From NCBI GenBank assembly GCA_949152475.1, contig OX424558.1:33986651-34050650 (forward strand): a DNA stretch of 64,000 nt, given 5' to 3'. Below are positions 23,984 through 54,100 of the stretch, in pieces (position 1 is the first letter of the stretch; each line of letters starts with the position of its first letter). The DNA is from Terebella lapidaria (lineage: Eukaryota; Annelida; Polychaeta; Terebellida; Terebellidae). The translations under genes were made by a program, and so were the position numbers. The notes under the pieces are model-generated. The model had not been told where the DNA came from. It searched no databases and saw nothing but the letters and a program-made list of their open reading frames with translations.

Positions 23984-24420
23984 CTATATTAGTCTCTTGA
24001 CCTGTAGACACAGTTGACAGTGTGACTCTCCTCATTGACTCAGCGAAACTCAGAGTCAATGCACTGTCACTGCGACTGTCACTGACTTGTACTGTACAAT
24101 TGTCATGATTGACAATGGGTTGCATACACCTCCACTCACTCTACCTTATTTCAGCTTCTAGAGAAACCAAAAACCTACAGGTTTTGAAACGAATGAAATA
24201 GAAAAGTGGGGGAAATGGAAGCAATAAATGGCAGATATTTATGGAAACTTACAATAATACATAATATGCAAATATTCTTCTGCCTGTTGAATCTTGTGGG
24301 ATTTTTTATTGTTTATTTCCTGATAATTTCCTGTACCAGGTAGTCAAAACTCCCACTTTTTACTTCAGCAGGCCATGAACACACAGTGAATACAGCTGCA
24401 AAGAATATCTGAATATAAAA
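23984..24420. other. EFCAB6 upstream region
   Basis: The first coding ATG is at 24421. The upstream 430 bp is AT-rich with no recognised TATA box, initiator or other motif. The transcription start could not be placed. Confidence 0.35.
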
Positions 24421-30400: not shown

Positions 30401-33400
30401 TCAATAAAACCAGCATGACTACATACACTTGATGTTGCAATCCTCAATGTGAATCTGTACTTCATCATTATGATCCTAGCCATTATTGTGCATGGATATT
30501 TTCATATATGTTTCATCAGTACCCAAATGCATGGTTCAATTTAGCACCTCCAAGTACATGTGTATGCACAACTAGGATTTAAATTACTTTATGTCGCACA
30601 CTGAATTTGTTTGTTCATTCTGGACAGAGTCCATCCATCTTTACAGACGATTGAAAAAATTTTCAAAAACCAAAAATATTGTGATAAATATATCTCTATT
30701 TATTGCCATACCACTACCTCTATAATAAACTCTTTGGGTAATCTTACCTTGGCATTCAAAGAAGAGGAGAGAGAAATGAATGTCACAAGAATTTTCTTAA
30801 AATTCCTGACATCCATCTCGAACTCGAAATTGAAGGAAATTACTCTCACACATCTCAGATTCCCCGCGGTGTAGATGTGACGTCACACCGGTCATATGAT
30901 TGACCTTAGCCGCCATTAATTTGCTCCTCCATTGTTGGATGTGCAGCAAGTCTTGCTTTCGGCATTCAAAGTCGAATTTCTTCACGTCTACGATCGTCTT
31001 TAGGCTGTTCTTTGCACAGCTTTTTCTTCAGTAGATCGTTCTTTCGTTGTTAGACTAGCTTAGAGTTAGTGATTTGCGATTTTTTGGGAGGAAATGGTAA
31101 AGCCTCCCCAGGCCCCTTTCCTTCCCCCATTATCGCCCGTTTGTACTTCGATGTTTGATATGTTTCAGATATGAAGTGCATCGTTTGCAAACACTACCTT
31201 CCTAAGTGGGAGGTTCACACACTGTTTATTGCCGTCCTTCAGCCACCTGTGATTTATGCGCGGATTGGTCCGTCGACGAGTGGAAACTTTGTCTTCAAGG
31301 CTTACGGGAGATTCAGGCCCGCAGGTTTGCTGGTTGCCCTACTCCCCCTTCCCCGTCAGATTCTGATAGCGCCAGGCCGCGTCCCAAGGCGTCTGAGGAA
31401 CGCAAGCGGCGTTTAGATTTGCAGTTATCCAATGCTGTTTGTGCTGTAAGTTTTGATTTATCATTGTCATTTTCTTTCAGCCAGGTACGGGTCCCGGGAG
31501 CCGCGCGTTCGGCTCTCGGCACCCTAACTTCCCCACAACCTACGGGTTTGTGTGGCTCACTTTTGGCTCCCTCTCTACTGGCCCCTCGTTCTCATGCTTC
31601 TCTGGCTGAACGACCTGGGTTTCAGTGTCCGAGTGTGGTTTCGGGGTCTGCCGGTTCCGTCGGGCTCACGACGGTTCCCTGCGCCCGGGATCCCTCTGGA
31701 CAGAGAGTGTTGTTTCCCCCTCCGGGTCGGGCGCCTGCCCCCGGAGCTGGGTTTCAACCCCATAGCCAGGGCGGATTTCGGTCCGGGCCCGTGTCGCCAG
31801 TGATACGGCAGCCGGCACCCGATTTCCCGTCGGTTACTGGACCCCAGGCCGTGGCTACCGGAGCCGTGGCCAGTAGGGGCCGGGAGCCAAGGGCCATGAG
31901 CCGTCCAAACCCATGGGTTCCTGGAGTTTCCATGTCTCCACGGTTTCCAGAGTTTCCTTTTTCTGATTCGCCTTGTGTGTTTCAGATCGCCGAGGATATC
32001 AAGGACGATTCCCCTCTTACGGCCCTGCCCTCCGGTTTCGTCGCCTCCAGCCAGGGTATGTTGTCCTTCGCCCAGTTGGCGGACCAAGGGTCTTCCCGTG
32101 CGTCGGAGCCGTCCGGTGTTCCTGTCCAGGGGAGCTCTTCCACGACGTCAGAGCAGCGCCTTAGGGGCGAGCTTCAGTCTTTTCGGGAAGAGATGTTAGG
32201 CCAGTGGCAGCAGTTTCTGGCGAGGTTCACGCCTCCACAGCCGCCACCGCCCCCGTCTTCCCCTCTGCCTAGGGAAGAGCCGTCTTCAGATGAGGAACCT
32301 TCCCTACAGGTCTCTCAGTCGGCTGACCAGCCGTTACCTGGCCCGTCAGGCCTCACGCTTCCGCGAAAGCGTAAGGCGGACCCGGACCAGGAGGCGGACC
32401 AGCCCGAGTCCGACGACCCTCTCTCTTGGGGGGAGAAGTTGGATTTTGTGAAGAGGGTCCTCCCGGGTTTGTGGCCCGAAGAGCATGCTCCGGCCCCAGT
32501 CAAGAAGGTGGCTCGTTCGATGATTTCTTCTGAGATGGAGCACCCCCGGCCGTCGAAGGACGCCTTACGGTTCCCTCTGTCGCAGGGAGTTCGCGGCTCC
32601 ATGCAGGAGCGCATGGACGAGACCATCAGGTCCAACAAGTCGGCGATTGGCGCGTATCCTGCTCGCCCGTCTGTCAACGACTACTATACGTCGTCGGAGT
32701 TGGACGACAAGCCTACAGCTTTGAGGAGGCATCACCCCCATTACGCCTTTTTCAAGGAGCCTAAGGCCGTGGAGATCCCATGGGCGGCCTTGGCGGAGCT
32801 GCAGCACACGTTTCGAGTGGGGCTGGCCACGGATTCGGCCATGGACTGGCTGTCGATGGCTACGAGACGGGCCATTCTTCAGTGCCGTGACCAGGTCCTG
32901 GACAACCCTGACGTCGACCGGGATGATTTGGCAGAAGCCTTATTGAGCTGCGCTTCATTGGTCACCTCCATTGGCAAAGGTGTGGGTGACAAGGTGGCCC
33001 TGGACTCCCACTCACTCTGGGTGTCCGAGTTGTGGCGGCGTGACGCCTTCCTCTCATCCCTCAAGTTCGAGGTTCCGGACCAGCTCATGACAGACATGAG
33101 AGTTCTCCACCCCGTTATCCCCTCTTCCGGAGCCCCTACTTCACTTCTACTCACTTCTACTTTAAGAAGCCCCAGTCTGCAGTTCAGCAGTCTCAGCCTC
33201 AGCAACAGCCGACTCGTGGCCGTGGTAGAGCTAGAGGCAGGGCCTCAGGGTTGCCCTTTCGCGGGGCCCCTGCCGGCAGCACCCGAGGAGACCGTGGTCG
33301 TGGCCGAGGCCGAGGACGCGGAGAGGCTCCCAAGCCCGCAGGGGAAAAGAAACCGGGTACGTATAGCTTCGGATTCCGGGCCGGATCCTTTGCTCGAGTG

Positions 33401-36400
33401 TCGAGAAGAGCTGCATGGTCAGCTCGTTTCGGTCGATATTCCTTCCTCAGACGAGCCCGTAGGAGCTCGTTTAATTCTGTTTTGGAAAGAGTGGGAGCGG
33501 CTCGGGCTTGCCCCTGGGTCGTCTCGACGCTCCGTCGAGGATTCGGCCTGAAATTCGAGAAATTGCCACCGTTATCGCCCGTCCCAAGGGGTTTCACTCT
33601 TCCAAACGATCCAGAACGCCGCCGTGTTCTCCACGAGGAGATAACGGCGATGATCGAGAAACAAGCGATAGAACCTGCTCCCGGGGACACTCCCGGGTTC
33701 TACAGCGTGTTGTTTGTGGTTCCCAAAGCGTCGGGGGGTTGGAGACCAGTGATAGATCTTTCTCCGTTGAACAAGTTCTTAATCGTGCCGACGTTTTCCA
33801 TGGAAACGCCGGAGCAAGTTCGTTCAGTCATGCCTCGCGATTCGTGGGTGGTAACGATCGATCTCAAAGATGCCTATTTCCATATTCCAATGAAACCTGC
33901 AGTTCGCAAATACCTGAGATTTCTCTATCTCGGCCGCGTATGGCAGTTTCGGGCGCTCCCGTTCGGATTATCGACAGCGCCGTGGATTTTCACCATGGTG
34001 GCTCGGGAAGTCCAGATTCTCGCCCACAAGCGGGGGATTTTTATCCACCAGTATCTCGACGATTGGCTAATCCGGCACCATTGTCGCGAAACGCTGATCG
34101 TCCAAGCACAGTTTGTGGTAAATCTATGCTCACGGATGGGGTTCAAAATCAACCAAAAAAAGTCCGACTTGTCACCGCGTCGAGACTTCGTCTTCTTGGG
34201 GTATCGTTATCAGACTACCTCAGAGACTGTTTTGCCGACGCTGGATCGTCAGTCAAAATTATCCGTGCTGTCAGAAGGGTTCCTTCGTCGCATTCCACAG
34301 ACGGCCAGACGCTGGCAGCCCCTTCTCGGGATGCTAGCGTCCACGGAAAAGTTAGTTCCGTTGGGCCGCCTGCACATGCGGCCTATTCAGCGGCATCTAC
34401 ACTCTCAATGGTCCCAGGTCACGGGAGACAGATCCCAGCTCGTGCAGGTCTCTCCGGAAGTCGTTTCCCATCTGCAATGGTGGCTGGATCCCGTCAATCT
34501 GCTCCGAGGGTCGTCATTCCGCCGGCCGCTTCCATCCAGGCACGTATTTACGGATGCCAGTATGGACGGCTGGGGCGCTCACTGGGACGACAGCGAGGTC
34601 TCGGGCACCTGGTCTTCGTCTCAGCAGGAATGGCACATAAACCTGTTGGAACTGGAGGCCGTGTTCTTGGCTCTCAGGCATTGGGAAACACATTTCCTCA
34701 ATCAGGCTGTGTTGGTGGCCACCGACAACTCCACCGTTGTCGCTTACATCAACAAGCAGGGCGGTACGAAGTCCCAGTCGCTGTGCCAGGCCGCTATCGA
34801 CCTCCTGCTCTGGTGTCACGACCGGGGTATTTCGCTTTTCGCGAGGCATATCCCTGGTCATATGAATGTTTGGGCGGACCGCCTCTCCCGGAGGGGCCAG
34901 GTCCAGGCCATGGAGTGGAGTCTTGCCCCCAGGGTATTCCAATCTCTCTGCGGCCTATGGGGCACGCCGATGGTCGATTTGTTTGCGACCCGGTGGAACC
35001 ACAAACTTCCTTCGTTTGTGTCTCCCATTCCCGATCCCACGGCCATGTCAGTGGATGCGATGTCGACGTCCTGGGAGGGCATGTACGCGTATGCTTACCC
35101 CCCAGCGGTGTTGTTGGACAAGGTGATCGCCAAGTTTCGGACTCACCAGTGTCGCCTCCTGCTGATTGCTCCGTGTCTGCCGCAGAGGTCGTGGTTCCCG
35201 GACCTTCTGGAGTTGATAGTAGACTTCCCTCGTCAGCTTCCGGATCGGTGGGACCTCCTCAAACAACCTCGCTCCAGCATGTTTCATCAGGCTCCCGCAA
35301 GTCTGAAACTTCATGCCTGGATATTGTCGAGCGATGTTTCCGAAAGAAGGGATTTTCAAGGGAGGTGTCCGCTAGGATCGCCCGATCAAATCGAAAATCT
35401 TCTTTGGCAGTCTACCAATCGAAGTGGACTTCCTTCTGTGCTTGGTGTCGTCGCCGGAAGGTTAGTCCTTTCAGAGTCGATGCTCCCCTAATTTCCGAAT
35501 TTCTTCTCGAAAAGTTCAATGAAGGGCGAGCTCCATCCACGATCGCGGGTTACCGTACGGCTATCGCGAAGACTCTAAAACCCAAACTTGGGATCGATTT
35601 TGGTCATGATCAAGGTTTGACTGCGTTGATTAATAGTTTCGAGATCGAAAGACCGAAAGCTAGGAACCCGGTTCCTGAGTGGGATCTATCGCTTGTTCTC
35701 AACGTCTTAAGAAAAGATCCGTTCGAACCCCTTGAGCGGGCCTCACTAAAGTTTCTGACGTTTAAGACGGTCTTCCTTTTGGCTCTGGCTTCCGGGAAGC
35801 GACGGAGTGAGCTCCACGCCCTGTCCTTTTCCAAAGTTAAGTGGAAGTCGGATGGCTCCTCGGTTCTCCTCGGAGTCATTCCCTCCTTTCTGGCCAAAAC
35901 TCAATTAGCAGGTACGCCATTATTGAGCTTTTCCATTCCCGCCCTGACTCCTTCTCTGGGGCCGGGCCTGGAGGAAGACGCGAAGCTTTGTCCCGTGCGA
36001 GCCCTCCGCATCTACGTTAATCGTACGCGTGAGCTGCATCTCGGCAAGCGTTTGCTTTTCGTGTCCTATCTTAAGGATTTTCCAAATGATATCCGTCCTG
36101 CTACGATCTCATCTTGGATCAAGAAGTGTGTTAGATTTTGCTATGAAAAGTCACAGGCGAAAAAATCCACAGGTTTCAGAGTCAAAGCGCATGATGTGAG
36201 GGCTCTCGCGGCTTCACTTGCCTTTACAAATAAAGTGTCTCTGAATGATGTCATGTCTGCCTGTACCTGGAAATCTCATAACACATTCACTTCTTTCTAT
36301 CTCAGGGAGTTAGCTTGGGAGGATGACTCCGGCCTCCAGCTTGGACGACTGGTGGCGGCGGAGCGTGTAGTCCAGCTGTAGATACCTGTAAATAGATCAA

Positions 36401-39400
36401 CACGCCTCTGTACAGATGCACCTGAGGTCGACTCCCAGGGGAGTTGCTCCTCTTCTTTGGCGAGGGAAATTTTTGTTCTTCTGCAAGAGGAAAGTCACCT
36501 CTGCAGAGCCCCTGCTCGTCTCCATGCATCTGAAGGTAATTCAGGCGTGTATTATGGTATAGTTGTAAATATCCTGTAAATATGTATTTTCGACTTAAAA
36601 TTATAATTTAAAAGTAAAACACAATATTTACTACTTCAATGGATATTTCCTACTCTCACACATCGGTGATGAAATTCCCGGGAGAGGGTTAAACCCACCT
36701 CCTTTGGTTATTCTGATATAACCCAAAGAGTTTATTATAGAGGTAGTGGTATGGCAATAAATAGGAAGTTTTAACTTGTTTAAAACCAGTATTTATTACA
36801 TACCTACCTCTATAATAAACACGATTATTCTCCCTCCCGCCTCCCCTGCCTTAACCAGGTGGGCAAATTAATGGCGGCTAAGGTCAATCATATGACCGGT
36901 GTGACGTCACATCTACACCGCGGGGAATCTGAGATGTGTGAGAGTAATTTCCTTCAATTTCGAGTTCGAGATGGATGTCAGGAATTTTAAGAAAATTCTT
37001 GTGACATTCATTTCTCTCTCCTCTTCTTTGAATGCCAAGGTAAGATTACCCAAAGAGTTTATTATAGAGGTAGGTATGTAATAAATACTGGTTTTAAACA
37101 AGTTAAAACTTCCTTTTGTCTATTTAGGGGCTATGGTATAGAAATCATTGTGACAAATTGAAAAAATAAATTTCATTTATACCCCCTGTAGACAACACCA
37201 GGCTGATGATTCTACGGCCAACAGGGCGTCAACCATGAGTGTAGACGAGATTATTGTAAGACTGCGGGACAAGATGGCGCAGTACTCGACCCAGATACGC
37301 AAGTCCTTCAAGCAGTACAGTCTCAGTGGCAAGGGCAAAGTGTCCAAAAAGGACTTCAGGAAGGTCAGGGACGTGGCAGCTAGGGTTCATTCGTATGGTG
37401 TCTTGACTGAATTTCAATATTCCCTGTAATTTATGGCAATAGAAATTTTATGACCAAAACTATAACCATAATAGGGTGTATGTATTATATTTTCTGAACC
37501 CTTGAGACAGTAACCTCAGCCAGTTGTTGTGCTGACAAAACTGCAAGAGATACCCCGGTATATTCATCTAAATATATTCATGGTGAATTGAAGGTTAAAG
37601 TGTTGATTCAATTAGAAACAAACACTCAGTTACTGTTTGTCTCCTACCTGCAGGTTCTAGAAACTATAGGTTTCTATCTAAGCGATGAACAATTCAAGGA
37701 ACTGTGCGCAAAACTCTCCTTCCACCAAAGCTACATGACTTACATGGACTTCGTCATGAACTTTGAGGATCCAAGAATTGACGGACCGTCAGAGGCACTG
37801 CTAAAGATTAACAACCATCGAGTGAACAGAATTAGAGGGGATGAGTATAGTATGACTGCTGAACAGGTCGAGAAAGCGCTACTTCATAAACTTCGGGAAA
37901 ACTTTGAGGTACATTTAAGGTGATGGACCGTATCAGGGAATTCTTTTTGAAAGTGAATATGAGGAAAGACTGGGGGAAACCAAGAGTTAAACAGACGAAG
38001 CTAAACTTAGAATATTAAGATTGAAGTTTTAAAGAGCTTCCATTTCATCGTAGGACTTGCGAGGAGCTTTCTACAAGTTTGACGATGATCACAACGGCCT
38101 TGTAACGAAGAAGAACTTCCGACGAATGCTGGACTCTTTCATGTTTATTCTGAGTGATGAAGAATTTGAACGTTTCTGTCAAATAATCGGCGTGACCAAC
38201 AAGTCCAAGATCAGCTACCGAGACTTCCTCAAAGCCTTTGAGTTGAGAGATACGGCCGAGGGTCACAAATGGCTTAACTCCACGCACAAGTTCGTAGATT
38301 TCTTTGAACGCTATGAATATATTACTCAGATGCTCATTGTGCACAGTAGATTTTATTTTATAGATGTTGTTTAACCCATATATGTTTTTATAACCACTTC
38401 TAAAGAGTGATTTGAATGGCAATGGTTGTCGGGTTTTGCACATTGCTGTGCATGGTATCAACACCATCAACAACAAGTTATTTCAGACTTGACTTTGAAG
38501 AAAGATAGCCTTACACATCCTTTGCACATTTCTCAGGTATAACCCAGTACCACCAACAAAGCTGCTAACTGCAGAAGAGGTCCATGCTTTGCTGGCTGTG
38601 AAAGCTCACCAACAGTATAAAGATCTGGCCAAGGTATGTGATCAGTTTCTCTCTAGTATTAGCTTATATTCTACAAATATACACATGTTTGCCATCATTC
38701 CTGATTTTTTTCCTCAGTTAAGCAGCAGTGAATTATAATAAACATTGTCATTGAAGTATTTCTCCTTTTCAATCATTTCGCAGGCATTCCGAGTGATGGA
38801 CTCGTCGAGTAATGGAGTCATCTCCAAAAACGAGCTGCGGGAAACTCTCTACAGGTTCATGATGCCCATGACGAAACAGGAGTTCAAGAGGCTGTGGGCA
38901 AGGTGGGTGAATCTTTCTGTGAAATGAATATATGTGTCTGGAGAAATGAGAGGGCAATGGAATCCATGAAGATCAGAAATAAAATCAGTCAAAGGGGCAA
39001 ATGGAGACAAGAAAAATTGAGTGTGAAATTCCTGCAGTTGAACCAATTAGTGATCTGGAAATCGGTGATACAACTCTCATCTTTTTAAAAATATCATACA
39101 ACCTGATATTTGCATGCACCAGGTATGATCCGAACGGCAATGGAAAAATAAGCCACCAAGACTTCCTCACACATCTGTCGGGGGAGCAGTTTGCACCAGG
39201 TGACGACAAGGGAACGTCCGAGAAAATTGCGGAGACAAGTCGAGTAAACCTGGAGATTCATCATCAGAACCAGCTGGACAAACAGCAGAAGATCATGGAG
39301 AGTCAAGCTGACCGCTCAGCAGTCTTTAGTGTAAAGGAACTGCTTCAGCAACTCAGGTGAATTGCTGTGCTAAATTTGGTGTATGATAGTTTTGTATTGC

Positions 39401-42400
39401 TGTAGTTGACTGTGTTATGAACTGAATTTGTAAGTCACACATTTAAGAGTATTTTTATTGCACAAAAAAGTGAGATGAAAAAATTTGGTAATCAATTTTG
39501 ATCATGTTTTGAGAACACATATATATGCATTGCACTTGATTTAAATATGTAATGTATTCACCCGAATACACAAAACTATAATGCATTTATATCACGTTTA
39601 TGAATTGACCTGACTAGATGCAACTCATCGAATACTCATGAATATATTTATAAATCATATATGTGACCCTGAAATATTGCTTTCCACAACCCCCCAGAGA
39701 CCAGATCCGAGATAAGTACAAGGATTTCCACACAGCGTTTAAAGCATACGACAAGCGTCAGCGCGGCTTCCTCACCTCCGCAAACATACAGAAAGTCCTT
39801 GTCGACTTCAACTACTTCTTGGATGATGATCAGTACTACGACTTGTTGGAGAAGTAAGAAACTCGCAAAACAGCTCGCCCGCTCAACGTGATGTAAATTT
39901 CTGAAAAATAATATGAAAAGTCTACCGGTAATTGAATAAACATAAGATTGATAGAAATTGTTCTTGTGGGTTTTTTGTCTCATTGCCATCACTCATGCAC
40001 CTCTATAGTGAACACCTTCCTGATCATCCAATATTGTTTGTTATAGAGGTTAGTATGAAACTAACTCCCTGGTTCTTGCAGACTGGAGCTGGTCAAACCG
40101 AAGGCCCGACTGACGTACCCCGACTTTCTCCGAGTGTTTGAGGAGGGACGCAAGGATCATTACAGCGCTGCGCCCGCTGACGCCCACTACCCGCAAGTCC
40201 AGAATGCACATCTCAGCAACGACCAGGCCCAGGCCAAGCTCAGGGAAACCATAGCCAAGGAATTAGATGTCTTGGATAGTGTAAGTGATCTTGAGTTTAA
40301 GTTCAATATCATTTACCGGTACTGTCTGGCATTTTGAATGAATGAATATGACTCCAGTTGGTATAGTACCTAGTAATGTTATGAGGCAGTTCTCTGTGAA
40401 CACAGATCTATACTTTCTTGTCTCAAATAGGACATGTAAATGCCTAGGCCAAGTTTTCACAAATAATTGCATTCAAATTTACGGAAAAAATTTTTAGTTG
40501 AATAATTCGTCCTCCACGCTTACAGGCTTTCCAAGCGCTGGACCCCAAGTACACGGGGAGGATCGCAGTTCCAGAGTTCCGCAGAATCCTGGATAACTTC
40601 TGCTTCAAGATGACGGATGAACAGTTCAAGCATCTGACTGGCAGCCTCGCCATCAGCCAGGACAACACGGTCGACTACACTGCATTCGTTACAGGCTTCA
40701 AGGATAATGATATGCTGGTCAGTTCTTGATCTAAACTCAACAACTGAATTCTGCGTGCACCTCAAAAATGTTATTTGAGATACACGAGCATTGTTTTTTC
40801 ATGCATCGCACACATGAACAGCAGCTGCACATGTAAATTTGTAACTTTGATCTTTCCATGTAAAATACTGTTGCAATTCACTTTGAGTCATTCCTTTCAT
40901 TTATATTTATTGCCATACTTCTACCTCTATAATACTTTGGAGTGTTTATAATAGGGGTAGGTATGTAATAAATACTTGCTTCAAACAGGTTAAAACTTCC
41001 TATTTATGTCCATACTACTACCTCTATAATAAACACTTTGCAAAAATAATGTAATAAATACTTGCTTCAAACAGGTTAAAACTTCCTTTTTATTCTCAGG
41101 AGCCAATAAACTGGGTAGACTCCATCAAGCAGTACACACAGAACAACGAGCCCCTTCTACAAACGCAAGAGGACGTTGACAGTCACATTCGCGAGGTGGT
41201 TTCCGCACGATTCAATGCCATCGCTCGTGCCATTTCTGACATCGATTACGCTAAGATTGGGGTCGTCTCCAAGGACGATTTCAAAGGGATTGTCTGCAAA
41301 TATTTAGCCCGACTGACCGAGGATCAGGTAAGGATCAGTGCATTGCTGTTCTGTTGTGGCAACCTTTCACCAATTGAAATTTAATTCCTGAAATTTCGAA
41401 AATGCAAGTAAAAGATTCTACATATGAGAAAGTTTTGTGCAACAAATTTGTCAACAATAGAGACATGTTACTCATGATATGAAGATCACTTCATCTATGC
41501 ATGTTGATGAAAAGTTATTTATGGTAGCCATATATATACTAAAGCTACATGCACAGCATTTTTACTTTATTTCCAGTTCGATGAGCTCTGGGATCGACTG
41601 AAAGTGAACGAGTTCGATAACTTGGACTACCATGATTTTTTCCGACGCTACTCTGGAGATTTGCCGCGGCCTGCCACATCGTCAGGGTTACCCGCCCGGC
41701 GACCTAGCACCAGCAACTCTGAAACAGGACGGGTGAGGGCTTCGAGATCCTAACCTTAGTTGTCTCTTTGTAGTCTCGTGTATGAGTATGAAAGAAAATA
41801 AAAGTCAGGGATTTACGATGAATTATATTAGATGGGAATTCGGTAAAAATATCACTTGCGAGTCAATTGAAGACAATTAAACTTTGCATTAATCTTTTTA
41901 CAGCTACAATGTACAGGTATATTCACAAAACCATGAACCAAGCTTATTCCTGAATAAATAGTTGTAATAACTTAATCATACATAATAATCTTTTATCATA
42001 CATGTAGAATCTGTACAGTTCTTGGAGCAACTCCAGCAACCAGCCCGCTCGGCCGTTCACGCCGATGGTCAATGCCGAGGACACGGAGAGACGCCTGAAG
42101 GATGTCATCTACAAGCACTGGAAGGACATCCAGCGACAGTGTCGAGCAGGCGACCCACACAACTCCGGGCAGATCTCACAGCGAGACTTCAAGTGTGAGT
42201 CCGGGCCTGTAGCTCGCTGATCGAGACTGATTTCTCTAGTGTGCGAAAATTTTAGCTCAACAGCCTGAAATTCATACGTGGAACTAAAATGCATTCCTAA
42301 CAATTCAGGAATCATAACCTTGTTACTGTTACTCGTGTCAGAAACCTACTTGTTTCTATTCGTGTTGAATGAAATTAAGTACCTTAAGAAATCAGTTGCA

Positions 42401-43235
42401 AATGCGATATTATTTTTTTCGCTTTGACAGTTATCATGGGCCGATACGGTTCCAATATCTCCGATGACGACATGAGAAAACTGCTGCTGAAGTATGACCT
42501 GCGAAACAACCAGCAGTTCTGCTACGCCGAGTTCCTGCGACATTTCGTCTTACACATGCGACCCAACGAGCCGGAGATCGGGCCGCTCCTCTCCCGCCGG
42601 AAGGTACAACCAGCAAAGGTGAGCAGTCAAGAATGGTACACAGTTCAGGAAGTTCACATAGAGGCTGTACATTGACCAGTACATATATAATGTTGAATAT
42701 ATAATGTATTGCCATACACAACCTCTATAATAAACACTAGTCAAAAGGAGGGGCAGAAATTGTTGTTATTGCCATTATTGCCCCACTTTTACCTCTATAA
42801 TAACACTAGTTAGGAAGGACGGGGATTTTTATTCCATCAGTGTATTCATCGCCCTTATTTACACTTTTTTGTAAAACAATTTCAATATAGGATGTGCAGG
42901 AAATTAGGACAATATTGGAAAGGATTCAATGAATGAACCACTCTTCTTTTCAGTTGTCCCCACCGCCAAATAAAACCAACAAGCAGAGTTCAGTAGGAGA
43001 GAGACTGCACCAGTGTGTGACTAGCAACTGGAAGGAAATGCGAAGGGATTTCAGGGCATGCGACGCTCAGAACATCGGAGTTGTGAATTCCGACGATTTC
43101 CGGCAAACTCTCCGGAACTTCAACTTGAATCTTACCGAGGAAGAATTCTCAGCACTGACTGGAAACTACGGACAAAGCAATGAAGGGTTAATTAGCTATA
43201 ATGATTTCATAAAAACTTTCTTGAAAAACACTTAA
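24421..43235 (+). CDS. EFCAB6: EFCAB6 (DJ-1-binding protein) homolog, 29 exons, 1529 aa
   Basis: Exons: 24421-24571, 24774-24880, 24988-25107, 26106-26212, 26396-26462, 26670-26806, 27192-27310, 27486-27604, 27837-27985, 28529-28639, 28741-28861, 29148-29318, 29420-29494, 29679-29839, 30053-30226, 37192-37363, 37654-37908, 38054-38289, 38537-38633, 38784-38902, 39123-39356, 39698-39853, 40082-40280, 40526-40717, 41100-41327, 41577-41732, 42008-42194, 42431-42618, 42954-43235. Phases agree throughout. The protein is a chain of repeated EF-hand units, mostly lacking ligands. Good calcium loops are visible at about residues 435-446 (DKNRDGKISRKE), 782-793, 889-900 (DSSSNGVISKNE) and 925-936 (DPNGNGKISHQD). 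Length and the C-terminal module fit EFCAB6 (human 1501 aa), which binds DJ-1/PARK7 and is reported in sperm axonemal microtubules. Intron 8 appears to use a GC donor. Intron 15 holds a 6.4-kb DIRS element. Poly(A) signal at 43823-43828. Confidence 0.92.
30698..30924 (+). repeat. DIRS copy B left inverted terminal repeat
   Basis: From about 30717 it is the complement of the right repeat (36863 to about 37070); the outermost 20-odd bases differ, as is usual for DIRS. It contains a perfect CRE-type octamer, TGACGTCA, at 30878-30885, which could serve as a promoter element. A copy is also present in the right repeat. Confidence 0.85.
31171..33551 (+). pseudogene. DIRS copy B Gag, frameshifted
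   Basis: The start [13 protein letters not shown] at 31171 goes out of frame after about 14 codons, because about 22 bp present in copy C are missing. The rest of Gag is readable from 31206 to about 33150. There a net 124-bp deletion, with the word CACTTCTACT duplicated at the junction, moves the frame again. Downstream the frame reads the RT leader and then stops at 33549-33551. The central Gag block (about 32500-33120) is intact and matches copy A. Confidence 0.85.
33251..35491 (+). CDS. DIRS copy B reverse transcriptase-RNase H (fused to Gag tail by a 1-nt deletion)
   Basis: The first 85 or so codons are the RG-rich Gag tail. One missing G near 33510, compared with copy C, joins that frame to the RT frame. 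RT motifs: [43 protein letters not shown] and an intact [10 protein letters not shown]. RNase H motifs: [34 protein letters not shown] and [11 protein letters not shown]. After about 34950 comes the DIRS C-terminal region often called the DAM-like methyltransferase domain ([24 protein letters not shown]). The catalytic residues look intact; only the Gag-Pol junction is altered. Confidence 0.85.
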   Translation: MPFRGAPAGSTRGDRGRGRGRGRGEAPKPAGEKKPGTYSFGFRAGSFARVSRRAAWSARFGRYSFLRRARRSSFNSVLERVGAARACPWVVSTLRRGFGLKFEKLPPLSPVPRGFTLPNDPERRRVLHEEITAMIEKQAIEPAPGDTPGFYSVLFVVPKASGGWRPVIDLSPLNKFLIVPTFSMETPEQVRSVMPRDSWVVTIDLKDAYFHIPMKPAVRKYLRFLYLGRVWQFRALPFGLSTAPWIFTMVAREVQILAHKRGIFIHQYLDDWLIRHHCRETLIVQAQFVVNLCSRMGFKINQKKSDLSPRRDFVFLGYRYQTTSETVLPTLDRQSKLSVLSEGFLRRIPQTARRWQPLLGMLASTEKLVPLGRLHMRPIQRHLHSQWSQVTGDRSQLVQVSPEVVSHLQWWLDPVNLLRGSSFRRPLPSRHVFTDASMDGWGAHWDDSEVSGTWSSSQQEWHINLLELEAVFLALRHWETHFLNQAVLVATDNSTVVAYINKQGGTKSQSLCQAAIDLLLWCHDRGISLFARHIPGHMNVWADRLSRRGQVQAMEWSLAPRVFQSLCGLWGTPMVDLFATRWNHKLPSFVSPIPDPTAMSVDAMSTSWEGMYAYAYPPAVLLDKVIAKFRTHQCRLLLIAPCLPQRSWFPDLLELIVDFPRQLPDRWDLLKQPRSSMFHQAPASLKLHAWILSSDVSERRDFQGRCPLGSPDQIENLLWQSTNRSGLPSVLGVVAGRLVLSESMLP
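33508..36381 (+). CDS. DIRS copy B tyrosine recombinase frame
   Basis: The frame is open for 957 codons. The YR proper begins near 35302 ([19 protein letters not shown]) and ends at the TAG at 36379-36381. Catalytic features are SGKRRSEL (Arg), KAHDVRAL (His-x-x-Arg) and SFYLREL (Tyr). The first 600 or so codons overlap the RT-RNase H frame and have Ser/Arg/Gly-rich composition typical of an out-of-phase reading. In copy C this frame is continuous with Gag; here the deletions separate them. Confidence 0.85.
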   Translation: MPLGRLDAPSRIRPEIREIATVIARPKGFHSSKRSRTPPCSPRGDNGDDRETSDRTCSRGHSRVLQRVVCGSQSVGGLETSDRSFSVEQVLNRADVFHGNAGASSFSHASRFVGGNDRSQRCLFPYSNETCSSQIPEISLSRPRMAVSGAPVRIIDSAVDFHHGGSGSPDSRPQAGDFYPPVSRRLANPAPLSRNADRPSTVCGKSMLTDGVQNQPKKVRLVTASRLRLLGVSLSDYLRDCFADAGSSVKIIRAVRRVPSSHSTDGQTLAAPSRDASVHGKVSSVGPPAHAAYSAASTLSMVPGHGRQIPARAGLSGSRFPSAMVAGSRQSAPRVVIPPAASIQARIYGCQYGRLGRSLGRQRGLGHLVFVSAGMAHKPVGTGGRVLGSQALGNTFPQSGCVGGHRQLHRCRLHQQAGRYEVPVAVPGRYRPPALVSRPGYFAFREAYPWSYECLGGPPLPEGPGPGHGVESCPQGIPISLRPMGHADGRFVCDPVEPQTSFVCVSHSRSHGHVSGCDVDVLGGHVRVCLPPSGVVGQGDRQVSDSPVSPPADCSVSAAEVVVPGPSGVDSRLPSSASGSVGPPQTTSLQHVSSGSRKSETSCLDIVERCFRKKGFSREVSARIARSNRKSSLAVYQSKWTSFCAWCRRRKVSPFRVDAPLISEFLLEKFNEGRAPSTIAGYRTAIAKTLKPKLGIDFGHDQGLTALINSFEIERPKARNPVPEWDLSLVLNVLRKDPFEPLERASLKFLTFKTVFLLALASGKRRSELHALSFSKVKWKSDGSSVLLGVIPSFLAKTQLAGTPLLSFSIPALTPSLGPGLEEDAKLCPVRALRIYVNRTRELHLGKRLLFVSYLKDFPNDIRPATISSWIKKCVRFCYEKSQAKKSTGFRVKAHDVRALAASLAFTNKVSLNDVMSACTWKSHNTFTSFYLRELAWEDDSGLQLGRLVAAERVVQL
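36721..36820 (+). repeat. DIRS copy B internal complementary region
   Basis: Bases 36721-36762 are the complement of the left end (30698 onward). The following bases to about 36820 are the complement of the right end (up to 37114). The junction GCAATAAAT|AGGAAG equals the complement of right end joined to left end. This is the sequence expected to template the circle junction of DIRS elements, and it lets both termini be placed. Confidence 0.9.
36863..37114 (+). repeat. DIRS copy B right inverted terminal repeat
   Basis: Complement of the left repeat apart from the outer end, which runs GTTTTAAACAAGTTAAAACTT and then CCT. It ends 77 bp before EFCAB6 exon 16. The flanking host bases are TTTGTCTATTTAG, a pyrimidine-rich stretch. 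Confidence 0.85.
39981..40075 (+). repeat. Degenerate DIRS-terminus unit in EFCAB6 intron 22
   Basis: The left-end-like CATTGCCATCACTCATGCAC and ACCTCTATAGTGAAC are followed after about 20 bp by GTTTGTTATAGAGGTTAG, like the DIRS right end. The two cores form a hairpin. The unit has the sense orientation and ends a few bases before the acceptor of exon 23 (40082). It is too diverged to place its ends exactly. Confidence 0.55.
40905..41087 (+). repeat. Two tandem terminal-only DIRS micro-units in EFCAB6 intron 24
   Basis: Unit 1 (40905-41001, 97 bp) and unit 2 (41002-41087, 86 bp) each begin like a DIRS left end (ATTTATTGCC; ATTTATGTCC) and end like a right end (CAGGTTAAAACTTCCT), with almost nothing between. 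They abut with no spacer, and the joint CTTCCT|ATTTAT equals the circle junction read from the internal complementary region of copies B and C. Unit 2 ends 12 bp before the acceptor of exon 25 (41100). There is no coding content. Confidence 0.8.
42705..42830 (+). repeat. Two DIRS left-end remnants in EFCAB6 intron 28
   Basis: TATTGCCATACACAACCTC with CTATAATAAACACTAG (from about 42707), and a similar second copy (from about 42768) with TACCTCTATAATAACACTAG, match the left-end core of the DIRS elements. No right ends are visible. Both are in sense with EFCAB6. Confidence 0.6.
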
Positions 43236-45125: not shown

Positions 45126-48100
45126 TTATCTCGGTTTAGGGACGATAAGGTTCCGCATCATGTCGAAGCTGTTTCCGTCGTCATGAACACTGAGAGTGCT
45201 GCCATCTGGTGTAGACACCGAGAGGTAGCCATATTCGTCAAGTCCAACAATTGTGACATCAAGATTCTCGTTCTCTATATGCACAGGAGCATTACTGAAA
45301 GGAAACATATTGGGAAGATCATTACAAGTTTTGTAATGAGTTAAGTTTTATTACAAATACAACATATTGGTATATATGTCTACAAACTGAATCAGGTTAC
45401 ATGTATATCAACTTTATAATCCATCTGACAATGATACTGTGTTTGAATGTTCACCTGTGCAGCCATTTGGCGTAATAAAGCTCCAGAAATGCCTCACGAC
45501 CCCTGCTTTGGAACAAACCAATGAGCTTCTCGATGTGGCTGACTGTCCTAGCCAGTAACTCTTCAACAGTGAAAGGCTGGAGATTTGCCCCACAGCTTGC
45601 GTTGTGTTGTCTTATGAGATCGTTAATGCAGATTGTGGGGTCCGTGTTGGTCACATTGAAGCCGCAACCTGCAAAGGAGAGGAACAATGGAAACTCATAA
45701 AATGCAGAAATTTTATCAATTTACAGATCATTTATTTCATACTTAAGAGTCATTATAAAAGTTTGAACACTGAAAACACAGTTGTCTTTTCTACCTGTCG
45801 AAAAATCTGTTGAAACTGATTTTCACATAGAAAGAAAGTTATCAGTCTAGATAATTGATTTTTATTTGCTTGGTAACATTACACAATGTATTTGAACTCT
45901 TTTACCGATGTTTGCATGAATAACATCAGCCATCACTGAAGACTTGACAAGGACACCTCCCAGTTTCATGGTGCTGCTGAAGTAGATATCATTTGGCCAC
46001 TTCAAACGTAGGTTTATGTCCTGAAAATACACACAAAAAGGAAGTTTTAACTTGTTTAAAACCAGTATTTATTACATACCTACCTCTATAATAAACTCTT
46101 TGGGTAATCTTACCTTGGCATTCAAAGAAGAGGAGAGAGAAATGAATGTCACAAGAATTTTCTCAAAATTCCTGACATCCATCTCGAACTCGAAATTGAA
46201 GGAAATTACTCTCACACATCTCAGATTCCCCGCGGTGTAGATGTGACGTCACACCGGTCATATGATTGACCTTAACCGCCATTAATTTGCCCACCTGGTT
46301 AAGGCAGGGGAGGCGGGAGGGAGAATAATCGTGTTTATTATAGAGGTAGGTATGTAATAAATACTGGTTTTAAACAAGTTAAAACTTCCTATTTATTGCC
46401 ATACCACTACCTCTATAATAAACTCTTTGGGTTATATCAGAATAACCAAAGGAGGTGGGTTTAACCCTCTCCCGGGAATTTCATCACCGATGTGTGAGAG
46501 TAGGAAATATCCATTGAAAGTAGTAAATATTGTGTTTTACTTTTAAATTATAATTTTAAGTCGAAAATACATATTTACAGGATATTTACAACTATACCAT
46601 AATACACGCCTGAATTACCTTCAGATGCATGGAGACGAGCAGGGGCTCTGCAGAGGTGACTTTCCTCTTGCAGAAGAACAAAAATTTCCCTCGCCAAAGA
46701 AGAGGAGCAACTCCCCTGGGAGTCGACCTCAGGTGCATCTGTACAGAGGCGTGCTGATCTATTTACAGGTATCTACAGCTGGACTACACGCTCCGCCGCC
46801 ACCAGTCGTCCAAGCTGGAGGCCGGAGTCATCCTCCCAAGCTAACTCCCTGAGATAGAAAGAAGTGAATGTGTTATGAGATTTCCAGGTACAGGCAGACA
46901 TGACATCATTCAGAGACACTTTATTTGTAAAGGCAAGTGAAGCCGCGAGAGCCCTCACATCATGCGCTTTGACTCTGAAACCTGTGGATTTTTTCGCCTG
47001 TGACTTTTCATAGCAAAATCTAACACACTTCTTGATCCAAGATGAGATCGTAGCAGGACGGATATCATTTGGAAAATCCTTAAGATAGGACACGAAAAGC
47101 AAACGCTTGCCGAGATGCAGCTCACGCGTACGATTAACGTAGATGCGGAGGGCTCGCACGGGACAAAGCTTCGCGTCTTCCTCCAGGCCCGGCCCCAGAG
47201 AAGGAGTCAGGGCGGGAATGGAAAAGCTCAATAATGGCGTACCTGCTAATTGAGTTTTGGCCAGAAAGGAGGGAATGACTCCGAGGAGAACCGAGGAGCC
47301 ATCCGACTTCCACTTAACTTTGGAAAAGGACAGAGCGTGAAGCTCACTCCGTCGCTTCCCGGAAGCCAGAGCCAAAAGGAAGACCGTCTTAAACGTCAGC
47401 AACTTTAGTGAGGCCCGCTCAAGGGGTTCGAACGGATCTTTTCTTAAGACGTTGAGAACAAGCGATAGATCCCACTCAGGAACCGGGTTCCTAGCTTTCG
47501 GTCTTTCGATCTCGAAACTATTAATCAACGCAGTCAAACCTTGATCATGACCAAAATCGATCCCAAGTTTGGGTTTTAGAGTCTTCGCGATAGCCGTACG
47601 GTAACCCGCGATCGTGGATGGAGCTCGCCCTTCATTGAACTTTTCGAGAAGAAATTCGGAAATTAGGGGAGCATCGACTCTGAAAGGACTAACCTTCCGG
47701 CGACGACACCAAGCACAGAAGGAAGTCCACTTCGATTGGTAGACTGCCAAAGAAGATTTTCGATTTGATCGGGCGATCCTAGCGGACACCTCCCTTGAAA
47801 ATCCCTTCTTTCGGAAACATCGCTCGACAATATCCAGGCATGAAGCTTCAGACTTGCGGGAGCCTGATGAAACATGCTGGAGCGAGGTTGTTTGAGGAGG
47901 TCCCACCGATCCGGAAGCTGACGAGGGAAGTCTACTATCAACTCCAGAAGGTCCGGGAACCACGACCTCTGCGGTAGACACGGAGCAATCAGCAGGAGGC
48001 GACACTGGTGAGTCCGAAACTTGGCGATCACCTTGTCCAACAACACCGCTGGGGGGTAAGCATACGCGTACATGCCCTCCCAGGACGTCGACATCGCATC

Positions 48101-51100
48101 CACTGACATGGCCGTGGGATCGGGAATGGGAGACACAAACGAAGGAAGTTTGTGGTTCCACCGGGTCGCAAACAAATCGACCATCGGCGTGCCCCATAGG
48201 CCGCAGAGAGATTGGAATACCCTGGGGGCAAGACTCCACTCCATGGCCTGGACCTGGCCCCTCCGGGAGAGGCGGTCCGCCCAAACATTCATATGACCAG
48301 GGATATGCCTCGCGAAAAGCGAAATACCCCGGTCGTGACACCAGAGCAGGAGGTCGATAGCGGCCTGGCACAGCGACTGGGACTTCGTACCGCCCTGCTT
48401 GTTGATGTAAGCGACAACGGTGGAGTTGTCGGTGGCCACCAACACAGCCTGATTGAGGAAATGTGTTTCCCAATGCCTGAGAGCCAAGAACACGGCCTCC
48501 AGTTCCAACAGGTTTATGTGCCATTCCTGCTGAGACGAAGACCAGGTGCCCGAGACCTCGCTGTCGTCCCAGTGAGCGCCCCAGCCGTCCATACTGGCAT
48601 CCGTAAATACGTGCCTGGATGGAAGCGGCCGGCGGAATGACGACCCTCGGAGCAGATTGACGGGATCCAGCCACCATTGCAGATGGGAAACGACTTCCGG
48701 AGAGACCTGCACGAGCTGGGATCTGTCTCCCGTGACCTGGGACCATTGAGAGTGTAGATGCCGCTGAATAGGCCGCATGTGCAGGCGGCCCAACGGAACT
48801 AACTTTTCCGTGGACGCCAGCATCCCGAGAAGGGACTGCCAGCGTCTGGCCGTCTGTGGAATGCGACGAAGGAAGCCTTCTGACAGCACGGATAATTTTG
48901 ACTGACGATCCAGCGTCGGCAACACAGTCTCTGAGGTAGTCTGATAACGATACCCCAAGAAGACGAAGTCTCGACGCGGTGACAAGTCGGACTTTTTTTG
49001 GTTGATTTTGAACCCCATCCGTGAGCATAGATTTACCACAAACTGTGCTTGGACGATCAGCGTTTCGCGACAATGGTGCCGGATTAGCCAATCGTCGAGA
49101 TATTGGTGGATAAAAATCCCCCGCTTGTGGGCGAGAATCTGGACTTCCCGAGCCACCATGGTGAAAATCCACGGCGCTGTCGATAATCCGAACGGGAGCG
49201 CCCGAAACTGCCATACGCGGCCGAGATAGAGAAATCTCAGGTATTTGCGAACTGCAGGTTTCATTGGAATATGGAAATAGGCATCTTTGAGATCGATCGT
49301 TACCACCCACGAATCGCGAGGCATGACTGAACGAACTTGCTCCGGCGTTTCCATGGAAAACGTCGGCACTATTAAGAACTTGTTCAACGGAGAAAGATCT
49401 ATCACTGGTCTCCAACCCCCCGACGCTTTGGGAACCACAAACAACACGCTGTAGAACCCGGGAGTGTCCCCGGGAGCAGGTTCTATCGCTTGTTTCTCGA
49501 TCATCGCCGTTATCTCCTCGTGGAGAACACGGCGGCGTTCTGGATCGTTTGGAAGAGTGAAACCCCTTGGGACGGGCGATAACGGTGGCAATTTCTCGAA
49601 TTTCAGGCCGAATCCTCGACGGAGCGTCGAGACGACCCAGGGGCAAGCCCCGAGCCGCTCCCACTCTTTCCAAAACAGAATTAAACGAGCTCCTACGGGC
49701 TCGTCTGAGGAAGGAATATCGACCGAAACGAGCTGACCATGCAGCTCTTCTCGACACTCGAGCAAAGGATCCGGCCCGGAATCCGAAGCTATACGTACCC
49801 GGTTTCTTTTCCCCTGCGGGCTTGGGAGCCTCTCCGCGTCCTCGGCCTCGGCCACGACCACGGTCTCCTCGGGTGCTGCCGGCAGAGGCCCCGCGAAAGG
49901 GCAACCCTGAGGCCCTGCCTCTCGCTCTACCACGGCCACGAGTCGGCTGTTGCTGAGGCTGAGACTGCTGAACTGCAGACTGGGGCTTCTTAAAGGCCGA
50001 AACCATCTGTTGCGTGAGGCGTTCCAGAGACTTCGACTGGCTCAGGAGGGCATTGGAAGTAGAGGACTTCGCGGCCTTCTCGTCGGCCTCCTTCTTCACC
50101 TCCCGCAACTCCGCAGAACGGTCAGGGAGTAGAAGTGAAGTAGGGGCTCCGGAAGAGGGGATAACGGGGTGGAGAACTCTCATGTCTGTCATGAGCTGGT
50201 CCGGAACCTCGAACTTGAGGGATGAGAGGAAGGCGTCACGCCGCCACAACTCGGACACCCAGAGTGAGTGGGAGTCCAGGGCCACCTTGTCACCCACACC
50301 TTTGCCAATGGAGGTGACCAATGAAGCGCAGCTCAATAAGGCTTCTGCCAAATCATCCCGGTCAACGTCAGGGTTGTCCAGGACCTGGTCACGGCACTGA
50401 AGAATGGCCCGTCTCGTAGCCATCGACAGCCAGTCCATGGCCGAATCCGTGGCCAGCCCCACTCGAAACGTGTGCTGCAGCTCCGCCAAGGCCGCCCATG
50501 GGATCTCCACGGCCTTAGGCTCCTTGAAAAAGGCGTAATGGGGGTGATGCCTCCTCAAAGCTGTAGGCTTGTCGTCCAACTCCGACGACGTATAGTAGTC
50601 GTTGACAGACGGGCGAGCAGGATACGCGCCAATCGCCGACTTGTTGGACCTGATGGTCTCGTCCATGCGCTCCTGCATGGAGCCGCGAACTCCCTGTGAC
50701 AGAGGGAACCGTAAGGCGTCCTTCGACGGCCGGGGGTGCTCTATCTCAGAAGAGATCATCGAACGAGCCACCTTCTTGACTGGGGCCGGAGCATGCTCTT
50801 CGGGCCACAAACCCGGGAGGACCCTCTTCACAAAATCCAACTTCTCCCCCCAAGAGAGAGGGTCGTCGGACTCGGGCTGGTCCGCCTCCTGGTCCGGGTC
50901 CGCCTTACGCTTTCGCGGAAGCGTGAGGCCTGACGGGCCAGGTAACGGCTGGTCAGCCGACTGAGAGACCTGTAGGGAAGGTTCCTCATCTGAAGACGGC
51001 TCTTCCCTAAGCAGAGGGGAAGACGGGGGCGGTGGCGGCTGTGGAGGCGTGAACCTCGCCAGAAACTGCTGCCACTGGCCTAACATCTCTTCCCGAAAAG

Positions 51101-54100
51101 ACTGAAGCTCGCCCCTAAGGCGCTGCTCTGACGTCGTGGAAGAGCTCCCCTGGACAGGAACACCGGACGGCTCCGACGCACGGGAAGACCCTTGGTCCGC
51201 CAACTGGGCGAAGGACAACATACCCTGGCTAGAGGCGACGAAACCGGAGGGCAGGGCCGTAAGAGGGGAATCGTCCTTGATATCCTCGGCGATCTGAAAC
51301 ACACAGGGCGAATCAGAAAAAGGAAACTCTGGAAACCGTGGAGACATGGAAACTCCAGGAACCCATGGGTTTGGACGGCTCATGGCCCTTGGCTCCCGGC
51401 CCCTACTGGCCACGGCTCCGGTAGCCACGGCCTGGGGTCCAGTAACCGACGGGAAATCGGGTGCCGGCGGCCGTATCACTGGCGACACGGGCCCGGACCG
51501 AAATCCGCCCTGGCTATGGGGTTGAAACCCAGCTCCGGGGGCAGGTGCCCGACCCGGAGGGGGAAACAACACTCTCTGTCCAGAGGGATCCCGGGCGCAG
51601 GGAACCGTCGTGAGCCCGACGGAACCGGCAGACCCCGAAACCACACTCGGACACTGAAACCCAGGTCGTTCAGCCAGAGAAGCATGAGAACGAGGGGCCA
51701 GTAGAGAGGGAGCCAAAAGTGAGCCACACAAACCCGTAGGTTGTGGGGAAGTTAGGGTGCCGAGAGCCGAACGCGCGGCTCCCGGGACCCGTACCTGGCT
51801 GAAAGAAAATGACAATGATAAATCAAAACTTACAGCACAAACAGCATTGGTTAACTGCAAATCTAAACGCCGCTTGCGTTCCTCAGACGCCTTGGGACGC
51901 GGCCTGGCGCTATCAGAATCTGACGGGGAAGGGGGAGTAGGGCAACCAGCAAACCTGCGGGCCTGAATCTCCCGTAAGCCTTGAAGACAGAGTTTCCACT
52001 CGTCGATGGACCAATCCGCGCATAACTCACAGGTGGCTGAAGGACGGCAATAAACAGTGTCCCTACACTGCCAGCAGGCGTTATGAGCCTCCCACTTAGG
52101 AAGGTAGTGTTTGCAAACGATGCACTTCATATCTGAAACATATCAAACATCGAAGTACAAACGGGCGATAATGGGGGAAGGAAAGGGGCCTGGGGAGGCT
52201 TTACCATTTCCTCCCAAAAAAATCGCAAATCACTAACTCTAAGCTAGTCTAACAACGAAAGAACGATCTACTGAAGAAAAAGCTGTGCAAAGAACAGCCT
52301 AAAGACGATCGTAGACGTGAAGAAATTCGACTTTGAATGCCGAAAGCAAGACTTGCTGCACATCCAACAATGGAGGAGCAAATTAATGGCGGTTAAGGTC
52401 AATCATATGACCGGTGTGACGTCACATCTACACCGCGGGGAATCTGAGATGTGTGAGAGTAATTTCCTTCAATTTCGAGTTCGAGATGGATGTCAGGAAT
52501 TTTGAGAAAATTCTTGTGACATTCATTTCTCTCTCCTCTTCTTTGAATGCCAAGGTAAGATTACCCAAAGAGTTTATTATAGAGGTAGTGGTATGGCAAT
52601 AAATGACGCAATTCAGAAATATCGCCATAATGCGACAGAACTTATGTGACACCTTTCATACCACACTGCCGCTTTCAAAGTCTGTCAGGACAATAATACA
52701 TGTATGCAAAATATTTCCGAATTATACCATACCGTTCCATACTTTGGAGTGACATTTAGAAAATCTACACAACACCATCAAGTAACTCTACCAGAATTCA
52801 TTTTATCACCTGACCTGGTATCCCTGCTGTTCAGTGACAGCTCTGACCACAGCGAGGGATGCTATGTGTTGGATAAATGCGACTCTCTGTCCCAACGGAG
52901 AATGTATTGGCACTCTAATGTGTAATGAGAACATCGCACATCCAACCGGACTGATCCACGCGTTACCGCCGCGACCTGGGAAATGTGAAATATGCATGAT
53001 GTAATACTTTGAACTGAAGAACATTTTCCATATATAGGAAGATTTCCAAAAGATTTTTATATGTATGAGCTAGTTAATTTTCTAACCTTGGCCAGCAGTT
53101 TGTCTGGAAGCTATGGCAATCAATCCTACATTCGTTGGAACAGAGAACATCATTCTGCAACAGAATTATAATTTTCTCACTCCTGTTTCATCCATAATAC
53201 TGATTCCCGAAGTACAAATAACTGAGAGGAAAGGAGACATTTACTGATGAACCCTAACATACCCTTGAAACAAGTTCATCGTAGTGTTGACAACTTCAGC
53301 GTACATAACAACTTGGCCCAAAATTTTTGTGGATAGATGTTGCTGGTAGACCTTGGAATTGAAGGTCTTCGGCGTGACACTGTAATCCGTGCATACGGGA
53401 ACTGTTTCCTTGGTGACAGTTGCCATGGATACATCACTCTCAGAGCAGAAGACAAGTGATAAATCGCTTGATTGAAGGACTTTGTTCTTCAGTCGGGACT
53501 TGATCGAGTTCAGCAAAGCAGATTCCAGACTCTGGAAACATCAAGGGAAATATCATGTCGGTCGACAGAGAAAATGCCATGTTGAACAAAATATTACCTA
53601 ATCTAAATTTATGATAGTTTATAGCAGTAATACTGGTGTGATAGAAATATACTTACTAGTAACACATTGAATTTTACACAACACTGTACAATGTTAGCAT
53701 GGGTTGTAAATTTTATCCTCACAGATTTAGATTCTACATTCAAATGTCAAAAAATATCAAAGCACCACAAATTTATGCAAAAACTCTTACGAGTTTTTTC
53801 CAAATTTACTGCTTTCAACCAGCAGCAATTTTTTTCTTGATTGAATCTACCTTGTTGGCAGGCAGCAGGTAACAGGGAGTGAGGTCAGGAACAGAACCTG
53901 CACTGCAGTCCAGCCCGATCTGTGTTATAATCTCTGTCAGAATCTCAAACCGGGCACGATTGTGTTGCTTCAGTGTGGCGAATATCTCAGGGTCAGAGCC
54001 AAGCTCCCCAGGGTCCCGATCGAGACTGACCTACCATAAACATGAGGATGTCAAATGTTCCCATAATAATATGTCTGTTCAGTAATGTTATTTGGAGAAA

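What the first reader, a model, noticed from the sequence alone, without database searches (positions are those of the whole stretch)
40905..41087. Two terminal-only DIRS micro-units joined exactly like a DIRS circle junction
Each unit is under 100 bp and consists of the DIRS left end fused almost directly to the right end. The units follow each other without spacer, and the joint (CTTCCT|ATTTAT) is the junction predicted by the internal complementary regions of copies B and C. This suggests that the YR can mobilise units with nothing but termini, and that the tandem came from a dimeric circle or from insertion of a second unit at an existing terminus. MITE-like derivatives of DIRS elements are not something I know as an established class.
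Basis: partly seen in the sequence, partly recalled or inferred. Interest (0 to 1): 0.75.

Follow-up and report, generated by a model that had tools for sequence, protein, structure and literature searches.

The report
Tiny terminal-only DIRS retrotransposon units
Two 86-97 base scraps of a DIRS retrotransposon, each little more than its two ends, sit end to end in an intron, joined as the element's circular form would be, and similar end-only scraps with mostly different middles occur elsewhere in the same animal genome.

Summary
Units 40905-41001 and 41002-41087 are each a DIRS left end fused almost directly to a right end, and their joint is the circle junction predicted by the internal complementary regions (ICRs) of copies A, B and C. 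Such units are not confined to this locus: 31 hairpin loci (24 with recognisable outer DIRS ends) plus L032, L033, L039, L041, L043 and L044 were found; a rough extrapolation gives about 500 (150-2600). In the size ranges searched, small units outnumber larger ones. Against a classical MITE: all 31 loops differ, though one pair (L038, L059) is nearly alike; with the exact cores searched, the micro-unit tandem occurs only here and in this locus's second copy. The circle-type joint is not special to micro-units: at least 5 other loci carry it, one between ICRs spaced like whole elements. The second copy of the locus lacks B and C and shows their empty sites, without duplication or loss, at a T run. 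Best reading: terminal-only derivatives arise repeatedly, probably by collapse of the paired inverted ends around retrotransposition, and enter by the YR circle pathway; the pair arose when a second short circle recombined at the first unit's end. Collapse after insertion is not excluded.

The parts
40905..41001 (+). Micro-unit 1: lTer (36 nt) joined to rTer (61 nt); the inverted arms can form a hairpin
41002..41087 (+). Micro-unit 2: lTer (39 nt), 8 nt filler, outer rTer (39 nt); inner right arm missing
   Evidence: lTer 39/39 identical to the ICR-encoded lTer of L004-L007
40994..41007 (+). Joint AACTTCCT|ATTTAT, the circle junction predicted by the ICRs
41088..41090 (+). NTT (TTT) at the right boundary; 12 nt from 41088 to the end of the host intron at 41099
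39982..40074 (+). Third, diverged micro-unit (lTer + rTer) in another intron of the same gene
42704..42807 (+). Two lTer-like pieces about 71 bp apart, without a recognisable rTer; orientation ambiguous because the arm is palindromic
30698..37114 (+). DIRS copy B (RT by Pfam; ITRs and ICR), absent from the second copy of the locus
46039..52604 (-). DIRS copy C, 98.3-99.5% identical to B, absent from the second copy of the locus
36718..36822 (-). ICR of B, encoding the circle junction
46331..46435 (+). ICR of C, encoding the circle junction
4147..4250 (-). ICR of copy A (A runs off the left window edge)
40718..41099 (+). Host intron holding the tandem (EF-hand gene)
   Evidence: intron borders read by eye; EF-hand family of the last exon

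Best explanation
The two units are terminal-only, non-autonomous derivatives of a DIRS1-like retrotransposon. Shown: clean ends at NTT, loss of everything between the inverted repeats, an exact circle-type joint, and a genome-wide class of similar units whose middles mostly differ from locus to locus. Inferred: a DIRS nucleic-acid intermediate folds its inverted terminal repeats together, the loop is lost and the ends are rejoined with a short variable middle; the shortened molecule keeps both outer ends, is circularised (a full-length element's ICR could act as splint in trans) and is inserted by a helper's tyrosine recombinase at a T run. At this site a second such circle then recombined with the existing end, or a mixed dimer went in, giving the tandem. 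Most units are thus made anew rather than copied from one founder.
For: The joint equals the junction in the A, B and C ICRs, which occurs at 734 exact genome places. The same joint followed by a true left end, not an ICR, occurs at 5 loci, control 0; at one (C2:16540621) two ICR-type matches on the same strand lie 6613 bp apart with the joint between them, about one element length (C is 6569 bp long). Empty sites of B and C show insertion with no duplication or loss at TTT. 31 hairpin loci, control 1; 24 of 31 with outer DIRS ends at p<=0.01. Loops: 31 of 31 distinct; mean similarity equals shuffled, 97 of 200 shuffles reach it; AC follows AAAC in 23 of 31 and GT precedes GTTT in 17 of 31. 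Exact-core left..right pairs by gap: 40-70, 7 units; 70-100, 3; 101-130, 0 DIRS-like; 150-180, 2; 200-230, none but the L040 pair; excess of the small class p 0.003 by units, 0.006 by loci (ranges chosen as I went). The two left arms differ at 3 of 30 sites where other DIRS families also vary, so unit 2 is not simply a recent copy of unit 1.
Against: Post-insertion collapse would give the same varied joints. L038 and L059 share a nearly identical middle, and L049, L051, L057 and L065 share ACTTGT next to the stem, which point to some common descent. The two right arms are identical over 39 nt, which fits duplication or conversion too. The exact-core micro-unit tandem is unique to this locus and its copy. 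The size test rests on 12 units; gaps 10-40, 131-149 and 181-199 were not searched, and the reversed control of the 40-70 search gave 4 hits. At L040 a unit plus both flanks is tandemly duplicated and one copy has since lost its inner right arm, so middles can also change after insertion. Seven of 31 hairpin loci have no significant outer ends. A 200 kb random sample gave no clear unit and one weak right-end match.
Confidence: 0.45

Rival explanations
1. A tandem of two full-length DIRS elements inserted here and each collapsed later, in the chromosome, to its two ends.
For: A tandem with whole-element spacing and the same joint is indicated at C2:16540621. Units of the young families have different internal joints. 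L040 shows loss of an inner arm after insertion.
Against: Needs two separate near-complete deletions that both spare both ends. Random deletions should leave intermediate sizes at least as often, but gaps 101-130, 150-180 and 200-230 hold 2 units against 10 at 40-100.
Confidence: 0.28
2. One micro-unit was tandemly duplicated in place by slippage or unequal crossing-over between the TTTAT repeats at its borders.
For: TTTAT lies at both borders and at the joint. Right arms are identical over 39 nt. Duplication of a unit with its flanks did happen at L040.
Against: Slippage at TTTAT would give CTTCCTTTTTAT; the joint has the A of the circle junction. Left arms differ at 3 of 30 sites, each a variant seen in other DIRS families. 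No flank is repeated here.
Confidence: 0.13
3. An old MITE family in the strict sense: a founder micro-unit was multiplied in trans and the loops have since decayed beyond recognition.
For: L038 and L059 have nearly the same middle at unrelated places; four loci share ACTTGT at the stem; several units here share the right-end variant ending AACAGGTTAAAACTTCCT.
Against: 31 of 31 loops differ and mean loop similarity equals shuffled, while right outer ends of those measured still match at 0.69-1.00. Units of young families have clearly different joints.
Confidence: 0.11
4. The pair is a piece of an inverted ICR flanked by two unrelated end fragments.
For: An ICR read backwards has the same rTer|lTer order.
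Against: The outer ends of both units are precise; the base before GTGTTT in unit 1 is A as in the right terminus of A, not C as in the ICRs (one base only).
Confidence: 0.03

Closest known systems
DIRS1-like retrotransposons (PMC3266345; passages and section 10 read)
   Same: Ends in NTT, inverted terminal repeats with a right extension, 3-bp circle junction read in the ICRs, no target-site duplication
   Different: The units lack all coding sequence and the ICRs; the nine delimited single units are 79-137 bp
Non-autonomous Crypton families (PMC3212892; passages read)
   Same: Non-coding derivatives of tyrosine-recombinase elements
   Different: The example read there shares 438 and 260 bp of ends with its parent and has no terminal repeats; here middles differ and the ends form a hairpin
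Solo AB repeats of Ngaro elements in Cafeteria (PMC8547959; passages read)
   Same: Coding part lost, repeats left
   Different: Ngaro repeats are split direct repeats, likened there to solo LTRs; DIRS ends are inverted
Expected deletion of DIRS interiors by recombination of repeats (PMC8498967; passages read)
   Same: Predicts an excess of DIRS ends over interiors; the authors say it had not been investigated to their knowledge
   Different: By the geometry of copy B, recombination of left end with ICR would leave about 330 bp (my inference); these units keep left-end sequence past the shared repeat and are far shorter
MITEs of DNA transposons (recalled)
   Same: Short, inverted ends, dispersed, thought to depend on a helper
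   Different: No target-site duplication, and little sign of a founder sequence here

Membership tests
DIRS1-like retrotransposon (copies B and C) | ITRs, right extension and ICRs encoding the circle junction | tested here: met
DIRS1-like retrotransposon (copies B and C) | RT and RNase H domains | tested here: met
   copy B only: RVT_1 E 2.1e-21; RT_RNaseH E 2.9e-5, 24.6 bits against a cut-off of 24.8
DIRS1-like retrotransposon (copies B and C) | Tyrosine recombinase | tested here: inconclusive
   No Pfam hit for the B ORF and no PDB hit for its C-terminal part; HDVR and a later Tyr read by eye in the ORF, motif recalled
DIRS1-like retrotransposon (copies B and C) | Insertion without target-site duplication | tested here: met
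   empty sites in L009 and L010
Terminal-only DIRS derivative (units 1 and 2) | Both DIRS termini, NTT borders, no interior | tested here: met
MITE family in the strict sense | Many copies derived from one founder (shared interior) | tested here: inconclusive
   31 of 31 loops distinct and no mean similarity, but L038 and L059 nearly share a middle and old loops may have decayed
MITE family in the strict sense | Mobilised in trans by a helper | not testable with these tools
   needs a transposition assay or insertion polymorphism
MITE family in the strict sense | Target-site duplication | tested here: not met
   ATTTAT / TTTTAT at the two outer borders of the pair is imperfect and T-rich; the larger elements B and C make none

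The most novel reading that the evidence does not exclude
DIRS elements continually spawn one-off mini-elements: pairing of the two inverted ends collapses a DIRS intermediate to a hairpin of constant stem with a random loop, and the YR inserts it. These mini-elements are mostly not copied from a founder but made afresh, so they form a class by mechanism and not by descent.
Probability: 0.25. Interest if true: 0.75.

Novelty: new variant of a known kind. Interest (0 to 1): 0.57.

Why it matters
A class of end-only DIRS units would show what a tyrosine recombinase retrotransposon needs in cis to insert, and would challenge the idea that each element needs its own internal complementary region to form a circle. 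It would also mean that DIRS footprints are undercounted by searches for coding sequence. In the held open-access library the phrases non-autonomous DIRS, nonautonomous DIRS, DIRS-like MITE, mini-DIRS and solo DIRS occur in no paper, and broader term searches listed none with such a title; most listed papers were not opened, and subscription journals and Repbase are not held, so this is not proof of absence.

Tried and rejected
Chance similarity: rejected. Ectopic recombination between left end and ICR: the product would carry ICR-side sequence after AAAC, not CTTTG, and be about 330 bp (inference). Strict founder MITE: kept only as a rival. Searches of IMG/VR and of prokaryote genomes found nothing related (close matches only). 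A host-protein search did not name the organism (2 hits); DIRS RT relatives are abundant (4816 proteins, 120 listed) but come without context. Introner plus tyrosine recombinase: no paper. A random sample of 20 stretches of 10 kb (drawn over C1-C7; none happened to fall on C5; 100 further planned stretches were not obtained) gave no clear unit.

Limits: pattern searches need exact cores, so counts are lower bounds; the copy-number extrapolation assumes that the arm bases decay independently and equally. The gap 10-40 search did not complete. Reversed-pattern controls: 4 for gap 40-70, 0 for the other gap ranges, 0 for. Rows dropped before counting: C59:440328, the same locus as C5:19963301; the two rows of the second copy of the window locus; C1:78315994, without DIRS sequence; the L040 pair, whose two units made the match. 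The two units were not looked at beyond the printed sequence.

Full report
What is there. The window holds three DIRS1-like elements: A (runs off the left edge, to 4546), B (30698-37114, +) and C (46039-52604, -). B and C are 98.3-99.5% identical; A is 70-74% identical to B in the two aligned parts. B carries an RT domain. The finding lies in an intron (40718-41099, borders read by eye) of an EF-hand gene on the + strand (EF-hand). Unit 1 (40905-41001, 97 bp) and unit 2 (41002-41087, 86 bp) both start like a DIRS left end and finish like a right end, without spacer between them.

The joint. Most DIRS1-like elements described in PMC3266345 begin and end with NTT, and the ICRs spell the junction of the circular form (section 10 read). 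The ICRs of A, B and C spell AACTTCCT|ATTTAT; the joint at 40994-41007 is the same. The A after CTTCCT matters: both borders of the pair have TTTAT, and slippage between these would give a T. The left arms differ at 3 of 30 sites; unit 2's left arm is identical over 39 nt to the ICR-encoded left end of another subfamily (L004-L007), unit 1's first 30 nt to a unit on contig C15 (L040). The right arms are identical over 39 nt.

The genome. The assembly (761.6 Mb, 438 contigs, organism not named) first answered. The locus exists twice on C4, 112 kb apart: the 231 bp query matches both places fully; 8767 bp differ at 3 sites, and the stretch matching window 52601-59338 is 97-98% alike. This may be an unmerged second haplotype or a duplication. 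The second copy has the unit pair but neither B nor C, so it shows their empty sites: B went in at ATATATCTCT|TTTGTC and C at GCGTC|TTTTGTG, with no base lost or duplicated.

Is the joint special? The junction occurs at 734 exact places, presumably mostly ICRs (only the first 100 rows were shown). Followed by true left-end sequence instead of ICR sequence it occurs at 5 loci, control 0. At one of them ICR-type matches on the same strand lie 6613 bp apart with the joint between them, as expected of two whole elements head to tail (the interiors were not read). So circle-type joints are a general, if rare, DIRS outcome here, and do not by themselves show mobility of micro-units. With exact cores, a joint followed by a micro-unit occurs only at this locus and its second copy.

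Are there more micro-units? Yes. Exact-core searches gave, besides this locus and its copy, L032, L033, L038, L039 and L040 (gap 40-70, 9 rows, reversed control 4) and L041, L043, L044 (gap 70-100, 4 rows of which two are one locus, control 0). The control of 4 warns that such matches can be chance, but each of the five other loci carries left-end or right-end sequence well beyond the searched core. A search for the hairpin stem itself found 13 loci with 13-nt arms (control 0) and 31 with 10-nt arms (control 1), the 13 among them; 24 of the 31 have recognisable outer DIRS ends (p<=0.01 against 300 shuffles), 7 do not. The fall from 31 to 13 extrapolates to about 500 units, range 150-2600 (rough). 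In the window a third unit at about 39982-40074 is found by a profile built without it (E 1.7e-8).

What kind of class? The nine delimited single units are 79-137 bp (the 245 given there for L040 covers two units). Between gap 40 and 100 there are 10 units, against 2 in the three searched ranges above (p 0.003 by units, 0.006 by loci; ranges chosen as I went). In the hairpin set AC follows AAAC in 23 and GT precedes GTTT in 17 of 31, and the loops have no common sequence on average; all 31 are distinct. Exceptions that point to some shared descent: L038 and L059 have nearly the same middle although their outer parts do not align well, and four loci share ACTTGT at the stem. L041 and L043 are near-perfect palindromes with longer stems. 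What mainly recurs is thus the architecture and not one sequence. I take this to mean repeated formation through pairing of the inverted ends; that step is inference. Loss of an inner arm after insertion also happens, as the duplicated unit at L040 shows, and unit 2 may have lost its inner right arm in that way.

Verdict. The structure is real and the joint is what was claimed. That units with nothing but ends are mobile is plausible but unproved: the size class and clean ends favour it; the lack of shared interiors and the existence of larger tandems with the same joint leave collapse after insertion open.

Noticed in passing
window 30698-37114, 40905-41087, 46039-52604, 39982-40074; L032, L039, L041, L043, L044: Where I could read host exons, 9 of 9 DIRS-derived insertions lie in introns in the sense direction, several just before a 3' splice site (12 nt for the tandem, 18 for C, 17 for L032, 77 for B, about 55-60 for L039, L041, L043). 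Pfam supports the exons of C (biotin ligase), L039 (EGF) and the EF-hand gene; those of L032 and L043 had no Pfam hit there, and L041 and L044 rest on reading frames and splice signals only. L033, L038, L040 and the hairpin loci were not determined; 42704-42807 was left out as ambiguous. T-run targeting may explain it: 31 of 215 A/TTT sites in 12 introns lie within 20 nt of the 3' splice site.
   Followed up: partly
G000:C4:34134380-34154379 (L009, L010): A second copy of the window locus 112 kb downstream, nearly identical over 8.8 kb, lacks both full-length DIRS elements; contig C59 likewise repeats a C5 locus. The assembly may hold unmerged haplotypes.
   Followed up: partly
L040 (C15:23743277 region): A micro-unit with both its flanks is tandemly duplicated (period about 167 bp by eye), and the two copies now differ in the inner right arm.
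   Followed up: partly
window 37036-37047: The inner ITR reads CCAAGGTAAGAT, a good match to a 5' splice site (recalled consensus), near the downstream end of the element; because the ends are inverted repeats the same holds in either orientation.
   Followed up: no
window 42704-42845: A related left-end piece is repeated in tandem at about 71 bp without a recognisable right end, so not every tandem nearby has the circle-type joint.
   Followed up: no
window 23543-23986: A 219 bp repeat in two copies 225 bp apart, with internal inverted repeats, of unknown nature (D7 and I22-I24).
   Followed up: no
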